Origin: Opeltia flavorubescens
Taxonomy: Eukaryota > Ascomycota > Lecanoromycetes > Teloschistales > Teloschistaceae
DNA: 64,000 nucleotides
Direction of reading: 5' to 3'
NCBI GenBank assembly: GCA_000442125.1
Contig: KE546971.1
Span: 1,490,583-1,554,582 of the forward strand
Both the position numbers and the translations under genes were made by a program. Of the stretch, positions 23,731 to 47,622 are shown piece after piece; the stretch's first letter is position 1, and every line of letters begins with the position of its first letter. The notes under the pieces were generated by a model. It did no database searches, was not told the DNA's origin, and was given only the letters and a program-made list of their open reading frames with translations.

Positions 23731-25970
23731 ATGGCACCCACGGAGTTTACTCCCATTGAAGACCACGACTTCAACGTAGAGATACACGAGGTCTTGCAGC
23801 CCATACATCCCGATTCGAGACGACCGTCATCGCCGTCATACCCGCCAGGTCTTCTAGAGCCGTTAATGGTACAAGAGCTGATCGATGGTCAGTTGTCTAA
23901 GGCTTCTATCGATTAATTCAAGCTTTACAGCAAATGGGCTAACATCAGCTTTCGGTTCTATAGATCAGCCCTCTGTAAGTTCGTCTATGAGAGAATTCAG
24001 GTCTCATTTATTACAACTTCATATAGAAATTCTTTGGTCTTCATGATAATTACAGGAAGATTTGTGATGATGATCAATTCAAGAAAGCCCATCCCGAGCT
24101 GGCCAATAATCTCATGGATGGTTTCTCGGATCCAGACTCTGTCATCTTCATTCGTCCCGCTCAAGATGAAGATGAAACGATGAAGACTACTCCCACGCTC
24201 ATGATTTCCAAAAAAGTCAATCGTACACGGATGGATCTACCACTGATTATACGGGACTCGACAATCATCTCTCGACCTGACTCCGGTTCTGAAGAGAACA
24301 TCATGATGCTGGACCTGGCCCAGTCTCTGAATCTGCAGCTTGACTCGACCCCTGAATATCAAAGAGAATTCAGGATGGCTAATGGGAAATACGTTAAAGC
24401 CCTTGGTCGTACAACGGCCAATTGCTGCTTCGCCAAAGATCCAATNGTAGAATTACGCTGCTGGTTCTACGTATTTCAGCAACTAATCAGCCCGCTAATT
24501 ATGGGTATGGCTTTTCTCGAGGAAACCCAAACACTCGAAAGATATCGGCATCGACTGGAAATCCGCATGATACCGCGCGCATTGCCTTTGCAGTTATGTA
24601 GCCTTGACTACCCACGCCGTCGGCTGTATTGTCTTGCCGATTCTCAACCTAAACTTGCGAATGCCGATACTGGATCTGAGCTCGATTTGATGTCGCTAGA
24701 ATACGTACAGAAGCGGGGCTTTACTGTTCAGCAGGTGGACACAACAGATTCCACAGTCCAATTTGCTGATCGTAGCTTGGCACAACTAGCTGGAAGGGTT
24801 CAAGTCAACATTAGTATAGGTCACGAAGGTAGCACTTGGTATTCGAGAGTGTTCAATGTTTTGGAGGGTTTGACATGTGATGTCCTTTTCGGGGAAGACT
24901 TCTTGGACGCCACAGCAGCCTTTCAGTCTTATTCCCAAGCGTTTGAGTTGGATACTGATGACGATGGCTTCTGTGAAGTCAACGCGATTGTTTGGTTCAA
25001 TGTGCTTGAATCAAGTCTTGCGCAAGTTTTCTGCAAGAATGCACCTGGATCAGACCCCCCATCTGGCAAGTCCCGATCCCAACATATTGAAATGACAGAA
25101 GTGTCGTTAGGCCGAGAGACATGATTCATAGGCTTGGCTAACGTGTCTCTATGGGACGTAGGAGAACCTGGTCTGATGGCAAAGGTCAAAAGCCGAGTTG
25201 ACACATTCTTCCGGGGCAAGGATTATCAAGGTCGAACGAATTTGGACCTTCCGAACGGTAGGACACTTTTTTAAACATATCGTCACTAATGGTAGCAACT
25301 GTGACATCCTGATTCGCATCTAATTATGCCAGACAACGACGATTCCGATCAACAAGAAAATCACCGTAGAGAAACGGCAAAGTGTGCGATTGCTCGACTG
25401 CCGGAAGCTGAGCAAGAAGCTGCATTGCAGATAGAAAGAGCTCAGATCGACGCATACGAGAATACACGGGTTTCATCCACGCCTCAGTCGTCGGAAAATG
25501 CCTTGGAAGGCAAATTTCCGTGTCAAAAACTTGGTTGCACTGCAAGTTTTCAAACACTGTACCTGCTTAAGTAAGAGCTCCCTCAGTATTCAGGTATCTA
25601 GACTTATCTGGTCCAAGCTCTCATATGAGCGTACATTCTTCTAGTCGTCCCCATTACTGCCCTATAGCAACTTGTCCACGTAGCAAAGGGGGACAAGGCT
25701 TCAGGAGGAAGAATGAACTAATCAGGCATGGTTTAATCCATCAAAGCCCAGGATACACATGTCCTTTCTGTCCAGACAACGAGCACAAATACCCTAGGCC
25801 TGATCAGTTGCAAAGGTAGGCAGTGACCCCAGCGCTTGCTCGCCAGCCGATTTTAATGAAGTGGTAGGCATGTGAGAGCCAATCATGCAGAGGTGGACAT
25901 GAGCGACCCTAGGCTACGTGATGTTTTAAGTCAAAGAGTACCCGAGAAGAGACGTCGTTTCGGTCGATAG
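23731..25970 (+). CDS. Retropepsin-like domain protein with C-terminal C2H2 zinc fingers (host gene)
   Basis: Modelled as seven exons (23731-23887, 23949-23974, 24027-25014, 25132-25257, 25333-25570, 25618-25815, 25868-25970), 611 residues. Two tandem acid-protease-like modules are visible: one with D-S-G-S near residue 146, one with the catalytic D-T-G-S at 275-278 and a hydrophobic DVLFGEDFL block. A charged helix (RETAKCAIARLPEAEQEAA) links to C2H2-type fingers: C-x4-C with H-x3-H, a second C-x4-C, and a short C-x2-C finger ending LQRHVRANH. Proteins of this arrangement occur in fungi as ordinary host genes related to retroelement proteases, probably long domesticated; function is unknown. 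The weakest junction is the 117-base intron 25015-25131, so the protease-like and zinc-finger parts might be two genes. An alternative acceptor at 23930 is also in frame. An N lies at 24446. Confidence 0.62.
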
Positions 25971-39045: not shown

Positions 39046-40558
39046 ATGGATGGCGATCCTACGGTTGAATCTCAATTGGACTCCCTTTCCCTGATCCTCC
39101 CTCTCCCCTATCGCATCGCATTTATTCTGGTTCTGGGAGTTTGGGCTTGGGGGGTGAATTTACATTACTTGTATCTTTTGAAAATTGTCAGTCAATTACC
39201 TGCTATTTGAGATCATTGCTGACCATATCAAGGACGTCCCGTACTTAATTAAATACTCCTCACGCACTTCTTCCCCCTTGCCGCACCACCAGCGAATCTA
39301 CGCCCTCGCAACCACAATCACAGCCCCCCTTCTCATCTCCCTCCTTTTCTTCTGGACCCTCACACGAGGCCGACCCTCCGCCGTCCTCGCCTGGGACATA
39401 ATCCCTCAATCCTACCTTTTCCTGCTCATCCTATTCTTTGTCATCCCTTACAAACGACTCTCCCCCAATGGCCGCTCCCGCTTCCTCACAATATTGAAAC
39501 GCATCAGCGTGGGGGGAATCGCCGAAACTCAAGATGGGAAGTTCGGCGATATCTTACTCGCTGATGTACTCACCTCGTACGCGAAAGTGTTGGGCGATCT
39601 CTTCGTATCCCTTTGCATGTTTTTCACATCGGGAAAATCTTCGACGGATAAACCCGACAGAGGGTGTGGGGGACAGTACATCGTGCCGATCATTATCAGC
39701 ATCCCGAGTATCATTCGGCTGAGGCAATGTCTGATTGAATACATGCGGGTGCGGAAGAGTCCGCAGAAGTCACCTGGTCAGGGGTGGGGAGGACAGCATT
39801 TGGCGAACGCGCTGAAGTATTCGAGTGCGTTTCCGGTGATTGTGCTTAGTGCGTTGCAGAGGGGTTATGATCCGGGGAGGATTGGGTTGAGTCAGACGGG
39901 GCTTTATCGGTTGTGGTATGTCTTACCCCCCACCCCCCCTTTTTTTTTCTTCTTTTTTTTTCTACAAAGGTGCTCGAATACAGTTTCCCTGACTTTCCCC
40001 CACAGGCTCATCTCCCTCTTCCTCAACTCCTTCTACTCCTTCTACTGGGACGTAGCCAAAGACTGGGACCTCGAATTCTTCTCCACCCTCTTCTCTCACT
40101 CCCCCTTTTCCTCCACATCATCCCAACAAACCTTCTCTCCAACATCCCCCTCTTTATACAACTACTCCCAATCATCTCCCCACCAGCATAATCATAGTCA
40201 CCACCTCCTCTCCCCCCACCCCCACCAGCAGAATCAACACTGGGGCCTCCGCGCCCAAACACACTTCCACACCCCATCTATCTACTACACCGCCATCGCC
40301 ATCGACCTCCTCCTACGGTGTACGTGGAGCTTGAAACTCAGCCCGCATTTGGATCATTGGGGGGAGATGGAGGGGAGTATTTTCGTCATGGAGATGGCGG
40401 AGGTGCTGAGGAGGTGGGTTTGGATTTTCTTTCGCGTGGAGGCGGAGTGGGTTAGGAGTAGAGGGGTGGGGGTTGGGGGTAGTGTGGGGATGGGGGAGTG
40501 GGCGGGGATGGATGGAGAGGATGGGGAGGATGTACTTTTGGGGGAACTACCTCGGTAG
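39046..40558 (+). CDS. ERD1: EXS-domain protein, ERD1-like
   Basis: Three exons (39046-39186, 39233-39915, 40006-40558) give 458 residues. The first exon supplies MDGDPTVESQLDSLSLILPL and a membrane segment ending WAWGVNLHYLYLLKI, which joins DVPYLIKYSSR, the ERD1-like N-terminus. The EXS region follows: SRFLTILKRIS, DGKFGDILLADVLTSYAKVL, GGQHLANALKYSSAFPVI, then LWLISLFLNSFYSFYWDVAKDWDLEF across the second splice, and WIFFRVEAEWVR near the end. Erd1 in yeast acts in the Golgi in phosphate recycling and retention of ER and glycosylation proteins. A His/Ser/Pro-rich low-complexity loop (about 295-345) and a Gly/Val-rich loop near the C-terminus are unusual. The second intron keeps an open frame (see findings). 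Confidence 0.9.
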
Positions 40559-41660: not shown

Positions 41661-44465
41661 TCAGCGGCCATACCTAGTGGGAGCTCTTCTCTGCCTTGAA
41701 GAAGTACGCCTTTGGTTTCTTTTTGGCAACCTTTCATCGTCACACAAAGAAGCGTCCATTCCTCTTTTTACGCCATCCGTTGACCTTTCTTCAACGTTGG
41801 ATTGTCGAACCTCAGGAATCGCTGTGGCCTTTGAATCCTCGAGCATTCTGGAGTAATCTCTTGAACAATCTATAGTCCACTGATCATCCGGGCCAAGTGT
41901 AGCTCGAAGTCCAGCGCATGCCCGCTGGTAGAGGGGTTCTGCATTGCTGTATCGCTTCTGCATGTGATATAATACGGCGAGGCTGTGGATTGTTTCAAGG
42001 GTCTGTTGATGCTCCTTTCCTAGCGTCTTCTCCCCGCTTTTTAATGCCCTGTGAAAGAGTATTTCTGCATCGCCATACCGCTTTTGCATCTGGTATAAGT
42101 TGGCGAGGCTATTGATTGTTTTAAGAGTACGTTGATTCTCCTTGCCTAGTGCCTCCTCGTCCCATCCCAATGCCCTCTGATAGAGTAATTCTGCATCCAG
42201 ACAACGCTTTTGCACGAAATAAAAAGTAGCAAGATCATGGACAATGGTTAGTGTCCGTGGATGCTCCTTGCCCAACATCTTCTCACTCGTTCGCAATCCT
42301 CTCTGGTAGAGTTTTTCTGCATCTCGAAAACGATTTTGCTTGCAGTATAAGCTAGCAAGGTCCAGAACAGTCGGAATCGTGTTTGAATAATTCCTCCTTA
42401 ACGTCTTTTTCCTGCCTCTTGATACTCTGTCATAAAGTTTTTCTGCGGCTTTCAATTTTCCCTGGGCATGTAATACATGTGCCAGATTGTGAACGCATGT
42501 CAATGTATTAGAATGCTCCACTCCCCGGACATATTCGTCTATTTTTAAGACTCGCCGGTACATCGTCTCTGCGGCTTCGTACTGGGACTGATTGCGTAGT
42601 ATTGTTGCTAGACAAACAATACTGGATAACGTACTCTGATCTTCAGCCCCAAAGGCACTCTCACTTCTCTTTACAGCTCGTACAATCATTTCCTCCGCAG
42701 CCTGATACTTGCCCTGCTTGCACAGTATTCCTGCTAATTCATGGATGATATCCAACGTCTCTGGATTTTCTGCTCCTGATTCTTTTTCTCTCTCCTCTAG
42801 CGCTCGCCTGCACATCTTTTCTGCAATCGAGTAGTCCCCTATTTCTCCCGCGTAATAGACTGCTTTCTCTAGCACAGCGGTGTAATCTTGCAGATGCTGG
42901 CTGTTGATAGGTCGGAAATTTAGGACAACCTTAACGTGTGGGAACAATGCTCGGCATGTCACCCAAGTCTTGTATTTTCCGTTGGGAAAGACTTTATTCA
43001 AAACTCTGGTGTACCTTGCCCGACAGACTTCTAAGTCCCCAGACGACTCCAACCATCTTTGTGTTGAGAACTGCACAAGTCGATGCATTTCAAACAAGGT
43101 ACCGTCGAACTCAGTTGCTCGGATTAGGGAATAGTTCGTGAGTGTCGATATATCGTCATCGAAATCTATATCTGTAATGTTTGCTGATTTACGCCAATAG
43201 TCCTTGTCATAACCATCTGCGCAATTTGTATCAGCGACGCTTACTGGTGCACCGCGATCTTTTTTGTTATAACGACGAAGGACCCACTCTGGGGCTCCCT
43301 GTCGATCGAAAAGACTCATCAATGACAGGAGCCGGGCAGCTGAGGGTCTTTGTTTTCGGATGTGTTCGAACGATATCTGCCAAGTGGTGATGATCGAATT
43401 ACTTGCGCTAGGGTCTCTTCGGATATCTCCCATATCTCGGTTTAGAAGACTAGCCCGATCCTGATCGCTCCTAGAGAGAATATCGAAATATCTGGAAATC
43501 GTAATGCGGGGCGCACGATGATTGATGAATGCTCCAGCTTGGCTAATCGCAAGGGGCATGTAATCTAGAGCCTGTACCAATCGCACCGCATCCCCACCGT
43601 CTATCTCATGTCCAGCTTTTTTTTGTAAGAGTTGCAGAGCATGGCTCTCAACCATTGGCTCTATGTAAATGATATCTCGACTGTGATTTCCGACCAGTCG
43701 CAGTGCTGCGTTCTGATTGCGAGAAGTGACCAGCATCGAGCCATTCGGCGTTTGAGGAATGGTTGATGACAAAGGGGCGGCGGCTTCGAGATTTGAATCG
43801 CTTCTATCGGTCCTCAACGCCTGTTCATGAGAGCTGACCAAAAGCGCTAAATCATCAACGTTATCGAGGATCATGATCCATCGACCGTTATCCTCATCGC
43901 TCAGCCAGGCGTTGACCAGTGGTATCACGTCAACCCCTGGTTCATCCCGACGGGGAATTTTCACACGGTCAGCTATCGTACGGTATCCTTCTTCGAATCG
44001 GGAAGCACTGCCGCCGAAAATCCAGAAGACCCATATCGATGGGTCGTTCTCTCGGATCTGATATGAATACTCAATCGCGAGCTGAGACTTCCTGTCACCG
44101 GTACATCGAGATCAGTCCTTGTCCAAGATAATCAACGAAGCATTAGATGTACCCTATGCCACCAAGACCGACGAGGGCAGTTCGCGAGGCTGGCTCCGAA
44201 CATTTTTCATGGATTTGATCAAGATAGCCCCGGTCTATAAAGCCAGGATCACGTCGGAAAGGAACGGTGGAGGAAGGTCTTGGTCTTGGTCCGTCGAAAT
44301 CTAAAACCAGGAGGCATTTTATGTCAGTGATCCCAAGGGTTTTTATGATATAGGCATACCTGACTGACGATTGTAATGAACGTGAAAATGTCCGGCATTC
44401 GAACCTACTTGGAGGCCCGTGTTCTCATGGCCTGAGAACTCAGTACAAGCGTTCGAAGTCGTCAT
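41661..44465 (-). CDS. NLR-type protein: N-terminal amyloid-like motif, NB-ARC, TPR repeats
   Basis: Three exons (44360-44465, 44153-44300, 41661-44091) give 894 residues. Residues 15-25 read NTGLQVGSNAG, an N-x-G-x-Q-x-G-x-N-x-G motif of the kind used as amyloid signalling sequences in fungal NLRs. A linker leads to the NB-ARC ATPase: PFRRDPGFIDRG, P-loop VGLGGIGKSQLA (about 79-89, restored by the second splice), Walker B WIMILDNVDD (156-165), GSMLVTSRNQ, and a YMPLAI motif. About residues 490-820 hold eight TPRs of the 42-residue NLR type (A-E-x-L/M-Y-x-R-A ... G-x-E-x-x-x-T-L). No catalytic N-terminal domain is present. By family, such STAND proteins oligomerise on ligand binding and template their effector. 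The effector candidate is the divergent hydrolase at 44952. The short Arg-rich tail is probably disordered. Confidence 0.88.
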
Positions 44466-44951
44466 TCTGCATTGGGGCAAGCGTAGATCTCAAAACCCGC
44501 CAACGATTGGGAATTCTTTCACCAGACACGACACAGAATTTGTAGTTGTTCCTGCTATGCGCGCAGTGGCACTGTTATCTCAACATGATAGGTTAGCATG
44601 CAAAGCTGTCTGAATAGATGCCTCCTTGACCTGTTCCACGCAAATCTGCTAGAGGGTGGCTTGACGTGCAGAGCAGGCAGACGTTCCGGAGCCAATGAAG
44701 AAGAGCCTTGCTACACCCTCGCAAGGGTTATACCTCCCTTACGAAGGATGCATTGCTTATGACATCTTCTACTGGTATACGAGCCTGAGTTTCTCTTTTC
44801 TATTCCTTTCCTATTACCGTGATCTCAAAAATATTCTGAGAAATACTTTTTTTTACTGCTTTCTTGTTCATGATTAGACAACTAGCTACTGTTGGCTTTA
44901 GCTGTTACTGAATAGGCCACTCTCCCACTGTCCAGTCTATGGAAAGTGGAA
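44466..44951. promoter_or_regulatory. Divergent promoter of the NLR / alpha-beta hydrolase pair
   Basis: 486 bases between the two divergent start codons, so both genes could be co-regulated from one region. I could not name specific factor sites; T-rich tracts occur at 44785-44860. Confidence 0.55.
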
Positions 44952-46420
44952 ATGGGTTATGGGTTGTTTGAGCTTCATAATCCCAATGATGCCTCTGTAG
45001 AGTCAGTATATCATGATGTCGACACATCGATAAAAATCCCCAATGTTGAGTTCTCACAGTGTTGTCCTTATTCATGGGTTACACGGCAACGAGGTCCGGA
45101 CGTGGACCTATGGTTCAGGACAAAAATCCGTGTTTTGGCCTCAAGAGCTTCTCCCGAGTGACATTGGCGATGCCCGGATCTTGAGCTTTGGATACGATGC
45201 AAACATCGCTCATGTCTGGGCTCGACCATCTGAAAATCGACTCGATTCATATTCGGATGACTTTTTTCAGCAATTGGACAACAACCGGCACAGGATAGGT
45301 GCGGTATGCCTTAATGTTTCTTTTAGATTTGAATGCTTTGCTAGGCTTCCTAGTCGAAATTCCATCATTCTACTTTCCTCTCATCGTCTTCCTTGCCACT
45401 CTCTGAACACTTCTCTGTTCATTCATTATCTGTTTCCTATCCTCCCATCCTTTGATTCGCTTCTCCATACATTTCGCTATATGTGGTACGACTTTGCAGG
45501 AAAGGCACCATAAGCTTCCTTTAAACATCTCCCACCGTTCGAACAGATATTTTATCTCTATACTAAAATCTGCGACTATGCTCAAGACAGATCGTCCTAT
45601 CATTCTAGCTGCGCACAGTCTAGGTGGTCTAGTCTGCGCCAATGTACGTGTCGAATCACTTACCCTCCTAGTGCTTGCTCATCACATCTACCAGGGTCTC
45701 GTCGATGCAGCCAGCGGGTCCGAAAGCATCAGACATCTCGCCAGCTGCGTCCGACGTATCGCCTTCCTCGGAACCCCTCATCAGGGCTCTGATAAAGCAC
45801 AATGGGCAGAAACAGGCAGATGTTTCATTAAGTACTTCAAGACAACCAACGCAGAACTCTCGAAGGACCTCGATAAGAGATCAGAGAAACTTGCGAAGCT
45901 TGGGGTGCAGTTCCCTACCTTGCTGAATTCCCGGGCTCAGGAACCAGAAACTCGAATCGATGTTGTGTGTTTCTATGAAGGTCTGACGACGAGGCTGGGA
46001 CTCGTTGATCTTGGCATGGTTTGTTGTAATATATAACACCACCACGTAGAACTTTGCTGATCTACTCCATGTAGATTGTAAAAGAATCATCGGCTTGCAT
46101 CGCCGGTTATCCTAGGACTTTGCTCGATGCGAATCACGAGAATATGTGCAAATTCAAGGATAGGAATGATATCAACTATGTTCGCCTCTCAGGTCTGTTG
46201 GTAAGATGGGTCCAGGAGCTCAAGAATGCTCAGGAGGCGACTAAGGAGAAGACGGTAGGCTTCCTTATCATCCCAAACCCTCAGGTCAACATGATGAGTT
46301 CTGAGTTGAAGATAGGCCACACATTCGTCATATACAGTCTATTCGGGAAGCCATAATTCGGGATTTCAAATGGGGCATAATTCGGGAAGTGTCAATGGTT
46401 TTACGTTTGGGGGCAAATGA
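44952..46420 (+). CDS. Alpha/beta-hydrolase (lipase-like effector) with C-terminal amyloid-like motif
   Basis: Six exons (44952-45001, 45060-45303, 45587-45643, 45695-46018, 46075-46254, 46316-46420) give 319 residues. The fold is that of the serine hydrolase domain found in fungal NLRs and SesB-like lipases: VVLIHGLHGNEVRTW (18-32), nucleophile elbow AAHSLGG (Ser109), HLASCVRRIAFLGTPHQGS, and the catalytic-His block LLDANHENMCKF (His246). The last exon ends NSGFQMGHNSG (299-309) plus a short SVNGFTFGGK tail; this N-x-G-x-Q-x-G-x-N-x-G spacing matches the NLR's N-terminus. The 283-base intron 45304-45586 is long for this genome and is supported by phase and domain continuity only. Without the last splice the protein would end at 46356 lacking the motif. 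Predicted role: membrane-acting cell-death effector or signal amplifier, by analogy. Confidence 0.8.
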
Positions 46421-46807: not shown

Positions 46808-47622
46808 TCACTTCTCCGGCGCATCCGGCAATCTCTCAATCACATACTTCCCTCTCGCCACACTCATAATCGGCACCCCAGGAATCTTCCTCACCCTCCT
46901 CTTCAAATCCCGATCATTCGTCGCCACAATGTAAATTTTATGCTTCTGCACCCTATCCACAAGACAATCATCCGCATACACCCCCTTATGACTACACTTC
47001 AACCTCTCCCATCTCTCATCCCGGGCGATGCGTAACGCGATGCGGTATTTGGGGCCAAGTTTTTCCAATTCGGCCATGACGCAGTCTGTGATTATTGGGA
47101 TACATTTTGCGTAGAGGCAGTCCATCATTGTGGATTGGAGCTCGAGTTTGTGTTGGACGGTGTGGGAGAGGAAGTTTGTGTCGATGAGGACGTTGTAGGG
47201 AGGGACGAGGGCGGTGTTGTATTGGAAGAAGAGGGAGGACTAGATTGGTGTTTTAGGAGGGAATTTGGGGGGATTATGGAGGAGAGGGTGGTACGGACGC
47301 TGACTTGTGGTCTAGAGGGTAGTTAGCTTTTGTCGGTTTGGGAGGAATTTGTTTGTAAGGAGGGGGGGAACGTACATTTCTCGTACTACCTCATCACCTT
47401 TTGATTTTCTCTTGCTCTTATCCTCGTCTTTGTTTTGGTTCTTCTTGCTGTGGCGGTATCAGCTGCGTGAATAGGAAAATTGTATAGCAAAAGACCTACA
47501 GGCGGGCATCTCGTTGGCCAATTACCCTTTTGACCTTTGATAACATTGAGCATTCTGCAAGGCACGAGAACCCAGGTATGACTAACTGCAGCGAACTTCC
47601 TCGTCTTCTTGATGCGACTCAT
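46808..47622 (-). CDS. FCF1: rRNA-processing PIN-domain protein Fcf1
   Basis: Five exons (47587-47622, 47500-47534, 47376-47447, 47299-47311, 46808-47239) give 195 residues, the usual family length. Assembled: MSRIKKTRKFAA, VKRVIGQRDARL, KKNQNKDEDK..., VVREIPQVS, SSLFFQYNTALVPPYNVLID. The PIN domain follows with the acidic residues of LIDTNFL, KCIPIITDCVMAELEKLG, YADDCLVD and IVATNDRDLKRRVR. Fcf1 (Utp24) is the endonuclease of the small-subunit processome that cuts pre-rRNA at sites A1/A2. The fourth exon is only 13 bases; the donor gtccgt is preferred over gtcagc because it restores the conserved PQVSSSLFF sequence. It is divergent from the CSI2-like gene. Confidence 0.93.

What the first reader, a model, noticed from the sequence alone, without database searches (positions are those of the whole stretch)
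41661..46420. Divergent NLR / alpha-beta-hydrolase pair sharing an amyloid-like motif
The NLR (894 aa) has no enzymatic N-terminal domain but begins with NTGLQVGSNAG (residues 15-25). The divergent hydrolase ends with NSGFQMGHNSG (residues 299-309). Both fit N-x-G-x-Q-x-G-x-N-x-G exactly, with the six fixed positions identical and hydrophobic or polar residues alternating between. Seen in sequence: motif, positions at opposite termini, and head-to-head arrangement. Established: fungal NLRs can activate neighbouring effectors (HeLo/HELL or SesB-like lipases) by prion-like templating of short shared motifs, for example HET-S/NWD2 and the PP-motif HELLP/SBP/PNT1 set. Inference: this is such a two-gene cell-death system, using a RHIM/PP-like or related motif, with a lipase as sole effector nearby and no HeLo partner in the window.
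Basis: partly seen in the sequence, partly recalled or inferred. Interest (0 to 1): 0.9.

Follow-up and report, generated by a model that had tools for sequence, protein, structure and literature searches.

The report
PP-motif receptor and lipase gene pair
Two neighbouring genes in what is probably a lichen-forming fungus, one coding for an immune-type receptor and one for a lipase-like enzyme, carry the same short amyloid-type tag (the known fungal PP motif, a relative of a motif used in mammalian necroptosis), so they look like a new example of a known fungal cell-death switch, unusual in that no pore-forming partner with the tag was found.

Summary
NLR residues 15-25 (NTGLQVGSNAG) and hydrolase residues 299-309 (NSGFQMGHNSG) both match N-x-G-x-Q-x-G-x-N-x-G in spliced models of divergent genes 486 bp apart. 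The motif is not new: its core NxGxQxGxN is the published PP (pseudopalindromic, RHIM-like) amyloid signalling motif (PMC9815663 passages), held in Pfam as PF17046 Ses_B. Ses_B matches the hydrolase tail above its cut-off (28.5 vs 23.2 bits); on the NLR it scores 18.5 bits in the whole protein (below) and 23.4 in the exon search (above). The proteins are a PP/NB-ARC-like/TPR receptor (PNT1 type) and a SesB-like alpha/beta hydrolase (SBP type). Homologues in Gyalolechia gomerana carry consecutive locus tags, and two other fungi fuse such a hydrolase to an NLR through one PP motif. [quoted passage not shown] Verdict: new member of a known kind, apparently lipase-only. No transcript, amyloid or activity evidence was available.

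The parts
41661..44465 (-). NLR gene, three exons (44465-44360, 44300-44153, 44091-41661), 894 aa: PP motif, NB-ARC-like domain, TPR repeats
   Evidence: Spliced model, identical to P0093. TPR_10 185 bits; NB-ARC 14.6 bits, below its cut-off of 23.5. P-loop GLGGIGKS at residue 80, LDNVDD at 160, MPLA at 263, MHRL at 420
44391..44423 (-). PP motif of the NLR, NTGLQVGSNAG, residues 15-25, in exon 1
   Evidence: Ses_B 18.5 bits on the whole protein, 23.4 bits in the six-frame genome search
44466..44951 (.). 486-bp region between the two start codons, presumably a shared promoter region
   Evidence: function inferred from the head-to-head arrangement
44952..46420 (+). SesB-like alpha/beta hydrolase gene, six exons (44952-45001, 45060-45303, 45587-45643, 45695-46018, 46075-46254, 46316-46420), 319 aa
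   Evidence: Spliced model; P0003 from its fourth residue equals the model from residue 99 to the end; homologues; hydrolase fold of homologue P0002
46355..46387 (+). PP motif of the hydrolase, NSGFQMGHNSG, residues 299-309, in the last exon (46316-46420)
   Evidence: Ses_B 28.5 bits, cut-off 23.2, residues 289-313
46255..46315 (+). Intron 5 of the hydrolase; if it is kept, the frame stops at 46356 and the motif is lost
   Evidence: homologues P0001, P0002, P0007 and P0011 continue into the motif at this point

Best explanation
This is a two-gene PP-motif (RHIM-like) amyloid signalling module. The NLR senses an unknown ligand, probably through its TPR repeats, and oligomerises through its NB-ARC-like domain, which brings several N-terminal PP motifs together; they assemble into a short amyloid seed. 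The seed templates the flexible C-terminal PP motif of the SesB-like hydrolase made by the divergent neighbour gene, clusters and switches on the enzyme, probably against membrane lipids, and leads to regulated cell death. Shown here: both gene models, the shared motif, its match to the PP family, a second species whose homologues carry consecutive locus tags, and natural hydrolase-PP-NLR fusions. Inferred from the PNT1/HELLP/SBP and NWD2/HET-S precedents: oligomerisation, templating, enzyme activation and cell death. The trigger is unknown.
For: Shared motif at the expected ends. Ses_B/PP profile match. PP core and PP loci in the literature (passages and section). Full motif near the C-terminus in 9 of 92 hydrolase homologues and near the N-terminus in 40 of the 120 NLR homologues listed (280 found; the window's own near-copies P0003 and P0093 are counted). 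Gyalolechia gomerana Q9188_004242 (hydrolase) and Q9188_004243 (NLR with the motif) with the same longest-contig length 27687. Fusions P0104 and P0120: hydrolase part 38% and 36% identical to P0002, then one PP motif, then NB-ARC. In the model of P0002 residues 283-295 and 299-318, the tail with the motif, have pLDDT below 50, as expected for a flexible tail.
Against: No transcript, fibril, seeding or activity data. 83 of the 92 hydrolase homologues do not have the full motif within 60 residues of the C-terminus (one of them, P0041, has it further in), among them five Teloschistaceae models and close relatives P0008 and P0009 with a changed motif.
Confidence: 0.8

Rival explanations
1. The NLR's PP motif mainly serves another, unlinked effector (a HeLo or HeLo-like killer with a diverged PP motif), and the lipase is an accessory, as HELLP and SBP share one NLR in Chaetomium.
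For: One NLR with two effectors is described for PP (PMC5485727 passage), and NLRs with unlinked effectors are predicted in other species (PMC7889193 passage). The assembly has 30 HeLo-like and 11 HeLo matches.
Against: Ses_B has only two matches in the assembly, both in this pair; the hydrolase tail finds only itself; a loosened PP pattern near all 50 HeLo-like, HeLo, SesA and Goodbye matches gave six stretches, none resembling a PP motif.
Confidence: 0.12
2. The two ends share the motif by descent and bind each other, but as an ordinary peptide contact (scaffold or inhibitor site), without amyloid propagation.
For: Nothing here measures amyloid formation; the motif is short.
Against: PP motifs of Podospora HELLP and PNT1 form prions and fibrils or foci in experiments (PMC7885112 passages), and the residue pattern is the same.
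Confidence: 0.06
3. Chance likeness or a wrong gene model: the hydrolase really ends at 46356 and the motif is not translated.
For: The motif lies in a separate last exon in another frame; five Teloschistaceae gene models lack it (P0004, P0005, P0012, P0013, P0015).
Against: Expected counts 2.5e-5 and 1.2e-5; 0 of 5000 shuffles; the same tail at the same place in P0001, P0002, P0006, P0007 and P0011; the five models depart at the exon 5/6 junction, as a missed last exon would make them.
Confidence: 0.02

Closest known systems
Chaetomium globosum HELLP / SBP / PNT1 PP-motif cluster (PMC5485727 and PMC7885112, passages; the original study was not read)
   Same: PP motif at the N-terminus of an NB-ARC/TPR NLR and at the C-terminus of a putative lipase encoded by a neighbouring gene
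   Different: No HELLP (HeLo-like) partner with the motif was found, at the locus or in the assembly
Podospora anserina HELLP / PNT1 pair (PMC7885112, passages)
   Same: Two-gene PP-motif system with an NB-ARC/TPR NLR
   Different: The partner there is a HeLo-like cell-death protein; here it is a SesB-like hydrolase
HeLo-Goodbye / sesB / STAND PP loci (PMC3321046, section 8 read)
   Same: sesB homologue and STAND protein share the PP motif
   Different: There a HeLo-Goodbye protein is adjacent; here none was found
Sigma-motif loci sesA / sesB / het-eN (PMC3321046, passages)
   Same: SesB-type hydrolase paired with a STAND protein through a shared terminal motif; some such loci lack sesA or sesB
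   Different: Different motif (sigma: GxGxQFNxx and GGTQNINT submotifs); 0 NACHT_sigma matches in this assembly
Mammalian RHIM (RIPK1/RIPK3)
   Same: PP is described as related to RHIM, and RHIM and PP prions partly cross-seed (PMC7885112 passages)
   Different: No kinase here; likeness to RHIM was not tested for this pair

Membership tests
PP-motif amyloid signalling pair | PP core NxGxQxGxN in both proteins | tested here: met
   core as given in PMC9815663
PP-motif amyloid signalling pair | Pfam Ses_B (PF17046) over cut-off in the effector | tested here: met
   28.5 vs 23.2 bits, residues 289-313
PP-motif amyloid signalling pair | Pfam Ses_B over cut-off in the NLR | tested here: inconclusive
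   18.5 bits on the whole protein, 23.4 in the six-frame search; homologue P0095 29.3
PP-motif amyloid signalling pair | Motif at the NLR N-terminus and the effector C-terminus, genes adjacent | tested here: met
   Residues 15-25 of 894 and 299-309 of 319; 486 bp between the start codons
PP-motif amyloid signalling pair | NB-ARC and TPR receptor | tested here: inconclusive
   TPR clear; NB-ARC 14.6 bits, below the cut-off of 23.5, but the P-loop and other motifs are present
PP-motif amyloid signalling pair | Motif forms amyloid and templates the effector | not testable with these tools
   Needs peptides and fluorescent fusions
HELLP/SBP/PNT1 three-gene type | HeLo-like (HELLP) partner carrying the motif | tested here: not met
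   limits: exon-by-exon search, possible divergence
SesB-like (SBP) lipases | Alpha/beta hydrolase with nucleophile elbow and catalytic His | tested here: met
   AHSLGG at residue 107, LDANH at 242, Ser and His conserved in at least 90% of 31 homologues; fold of homologue P0002. DUF676 19.8 vs 20.3 in the final model
SesB-like (SBP) lipases | Lipase activity | not testable with these tools
   No assay; SBP itself is called a putative lipase (PMC5485727 passage)
Sigma-motif (sesA/sesB/het-eN) systems | NACHT_sigma motif | tested here: not met
   0 matches to PF17106 in the assembly at E up to 10; the submotifs printed in PMC3321046 differ

The most novel reading that the evidence does not exclude
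A lipase-only PP/RHIM-like signalosome in a probable lichen-forming fungus: the receptor's amyloid seed switches on an enzyme and nothing else, with no HeLo-type pore former bearing the motif anywhere in the genome, so that the SBP-type lipase alone carries the output.
Probability: 0.4. Interest if true: 0.5.

Novelty: new member of a known kind. Interest (0 to 1): 0.35.

Why it matters
In the PP loci described in the passages read, a HeLo-type protein is present wherever the lipase is, so the lipase's own contribution cannot be read from gene content. A natural NLR/lipase pair without a tagged HeLo partner would make the role of SesB-like lipases in RHIM-like amyloid signalling directly testable. 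It also points to PP signalling in Teloschistaceae lichen fungi. One search for amyloid signaling, lichen and NLR together listed 4 papers; in the only one on fungi, PMC10197012, both lichen mentions shown were in the reference list (passages; it counts 3).

Tried and rejected
Sigma motif: considered because SesB is named after the sigma locus; rejected on the printed sigma submotifs and 0 NACHT_sigma matches. HET-s motif: 0 matches to PF11558, but the control genomes were silent too, so this is weak. Hydrolase models: a wrong intron-1 donor broke the frame; then 316 aa; final 319 aa. Chance and artefact: rejected. Co-evolution of the two motifs within species: not tested, because outside the window no species gave both proteins with the motif. 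The motif was not modelled as a fibril. The PDB fold search confirms only the hydrolase class (TM-scores 0.34-0.49 by query length in the 50 rows shown). Hidden HeLo partner: sought by Ses_B, by the tail peptide and by pattern at all 30 HeLo-like, 11 HeLo, 5 SesA and 4 Goodbye matches; not found, but the genome is searched exon by exon and a diverged motif could be missed.
Full report
1. Observation. The window holds two divergent genes. The minus-strand gene (exons 44465-44360, 44300-44153, 44091-41661) encodes 894 aa and begins MTTSNACTEFSGHENTGLQVGSNAGHFHVHYNRQS. Its model is identical to P0093, a protein in the public set. The plus-strand gene has six exons (44952-45001, 45060-45303, 45587-45643, 45695-46018, 46075-46254, 46316-46420) and encodes 319 aa ending ATHSSYTVYSGSHNSGFQMGHNSGSVNGFTFGGK. 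P0003 (224 aa, 99% identical; its longest contig, 6482, has the same length as that of P0093) equals my model from residue 99 to the end, starting at its own fourth residue. These are predictions from elsewhere, not known transcripts. From composition the pattern is expected 1.2e-5 times in the NLR and 2.5e-5 times in the hydrolase. The best 20-residue ungapped match between the two ends was reached in 0 of 5000 shuffles, by a small margin (51 against a maximum of 49).

2. What the proteins are. The NLR has a P-loop (GLGGIGKS), LDNVDD, MPLA and MHRL and many TPR repeats, but its Pfam NB-ARC score (14.6 bits) is below the cut-off. The other protein is an alpha/beta hydrolase by its motifs AHSLGG, GTPH and LDANH, with the serine and histidine conserved in at least 90% of the 31 homologues aligned. 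Pfam DUF676 scored 20.8 bits on my 316-aa model and 19.8 on the final one, around its cut-off of 20.3. The structure model of homologue P0002 (mean pLDDT 82; residues 283-295 and 299-318 below 50) resembles many PDB hydrolases (429 chains with E up to 0.001, modest TM-scores), and the alignment profile matches lipase BlEst2, 6wpx, at E 1.9e-8. Apart from near-identical P0003 and unnamed P0002, the four closest hydrolase homologues by E-value begin with three Teloschistaceae lichen fungi: P0001 Gyalolechia 76%, P0004 Seirophora 79% and P0005 Fulgogasparrea 74% (lineage of Gyalolechia, family of the other two recalled). The source is therefore probably such a fungus; no record names it.

3. The motif is the PP motif. 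Pfam Ses_B (PF17046) matches the hydrolase tail at 28.5 bits (cut-off 23.2) and the NLR N-terminus at 18.5 bits on the whole protein or 23.4 in the six-frame search, which marks it as over the cut-off. PMC8086366 takes PP from Pfam Ses_B (passages). PMC9815663 gives the PP core as NxGxQxGxN (passages). PMC3321046 defines the PP motif in HeLo, HeLo-Goodbye, STAND and sesB proteins (section 8 read; other passages). PMC5485727 and PMC7885112 (passages) describe PNT1, HELLP and the putative lipase SBP, and prion behaviour of the Podospora PP motifs.

4. Conservation. Of 92 hydrolase homologues, 9 carry the full motif within 60 residues of the C-terminus, and one more (P0041) further in. Of the 120 NLR homologues listed (280 found), 40 carry it within 60 residues of the N-terminus; that search used residues 1-160, so it includes the motif. 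P0003 and P0093 are the window's own near-copies. Hydrolase tails agree beyond the 11 residues, for example FSGNNNSGFQLGHNTGSISGFIFG in P0002 and FSGPNNSGFQLGHNAGNLNGFTFG in P0007. In Gyalolechia gomerana the hydrolase (Q9188_004242) and a motif-bearing NLR (Q9188_004243) have consecutive tags and the same longest-contig length. That hydrolase model lacks the motif, as do P0004, P0005, P0012 and P0015; all five depart at the exon 5/6 junction. Missed last exons or real intron retention would both explain this. P0104 (Cenococcum) and P0120 (Hyaloscypha) are single chains in which a hydrolase, 38% and 36% identical to P0002, is followed by one PP motif (Ses_B 32.0 and 26.5 bits) and an NB-ARC domain (28.4 bits in P0104; 20.4, below the cut-off, in P0120). 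Pfam itself reports no hydrolase family in P0104 and only sub-threshold ones in P0120. These fusions are an independent sign that hydrolase and receptor work together.

5. No tagged HeLo partner found. In the 34.4-Mb, 23-contig assembly Ses_B has two matches at E up to 10, both in this pair, and the hydrolase tail finds only itself. The assembly has 30 HeLo-like, 11 HeLo, 5 SesA and 4 Goodbye matches at E up to 1 (some lie at the same locus). A loosened PP pattern in the roughly 3-kb stretches around all 50 gave six stretches, none resembling a PP motif. Of the 11 NLR-query matches, 3 are this gene; the other 8 do not lie beside any of the 16 lipase-query matches outside this locus (positions). 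Limits: exon-by-exon search, first-look filters, counts that are lower bounds, possible divergence.

6. Mechanism and standing. By analogy with PNT1/HELLP/SBP and NWD2/HET-S, receptor oligomerisation would nucleate PP amyloid that templates the hydrolase tail and turns the enzyme on. Sequence, position and family are shown; amyloid, activation, cell death and trigger are inferred. The pair is a new member of a known kind. Its one distinguishing trait is the apparent lipase-only output: in the passages read, PP lipases occur together with a HeLo-type protein, whereas some sigma loci lack sesA or sesB. No paper was read in full, and the original C. globosum study was not read, so a published lipase-only PP pair is not excluded.

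Noticed in passing
44440-44472, minus strand: An upstream ATG 7 bases before the NLR start opens a 10-codon out-of-frame ORF (MQNDDFERLY*) that overlaps the start of the NLR.
   Followed up: no
46255-46315: The last hydrolase intron reads through in frame to a stop at 46356, so intron retention would give a lipase without the amyloid motif; five related gene models depart at the same junction.
   Followed up: partly
P0008, P0009, P0014 (homologues): Hydrolases 46-52% identical to the window's end in a changed motif with GLQQ (for example NNGLQQHTNSG, NYGLQQHTNSG), possibly a diverged PP variant; Ses_B is not reported for them at E up to 0.01.
   Followed up: partly
P0104, P0120 (homologues): One-chain hydrolase-PP-NB-ARC proteins in Cenococcum and Hyaloscypha.
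   Followed up: yes
P0074, P0076, P0078, P0079 (homologues): Weak bacterial homologues of the hydrolase (E 1e-8 to 1e-7) with Pfam PF20285; three are named ABC-three component system proteins and P0078 a putative lipase, with the same label in its second name.
   Followed up: no
45304-45586: Hydrolase intron 2 is 283 bases long, against 51-61 for the other four.
   Followed up: no
39185-40558 (+) and 46808-47128 (-): The pair is flanked by an EXS-family gene and an Fcf1 gene, that is, ordinary conserved genes.
   Followed up: partly
24114-25124 (+): ORF with a DTGS stretch that by eye resembles a retropepsin-like protease; one of the window's five single N bases (24446) lies in it.
   Followed up: no
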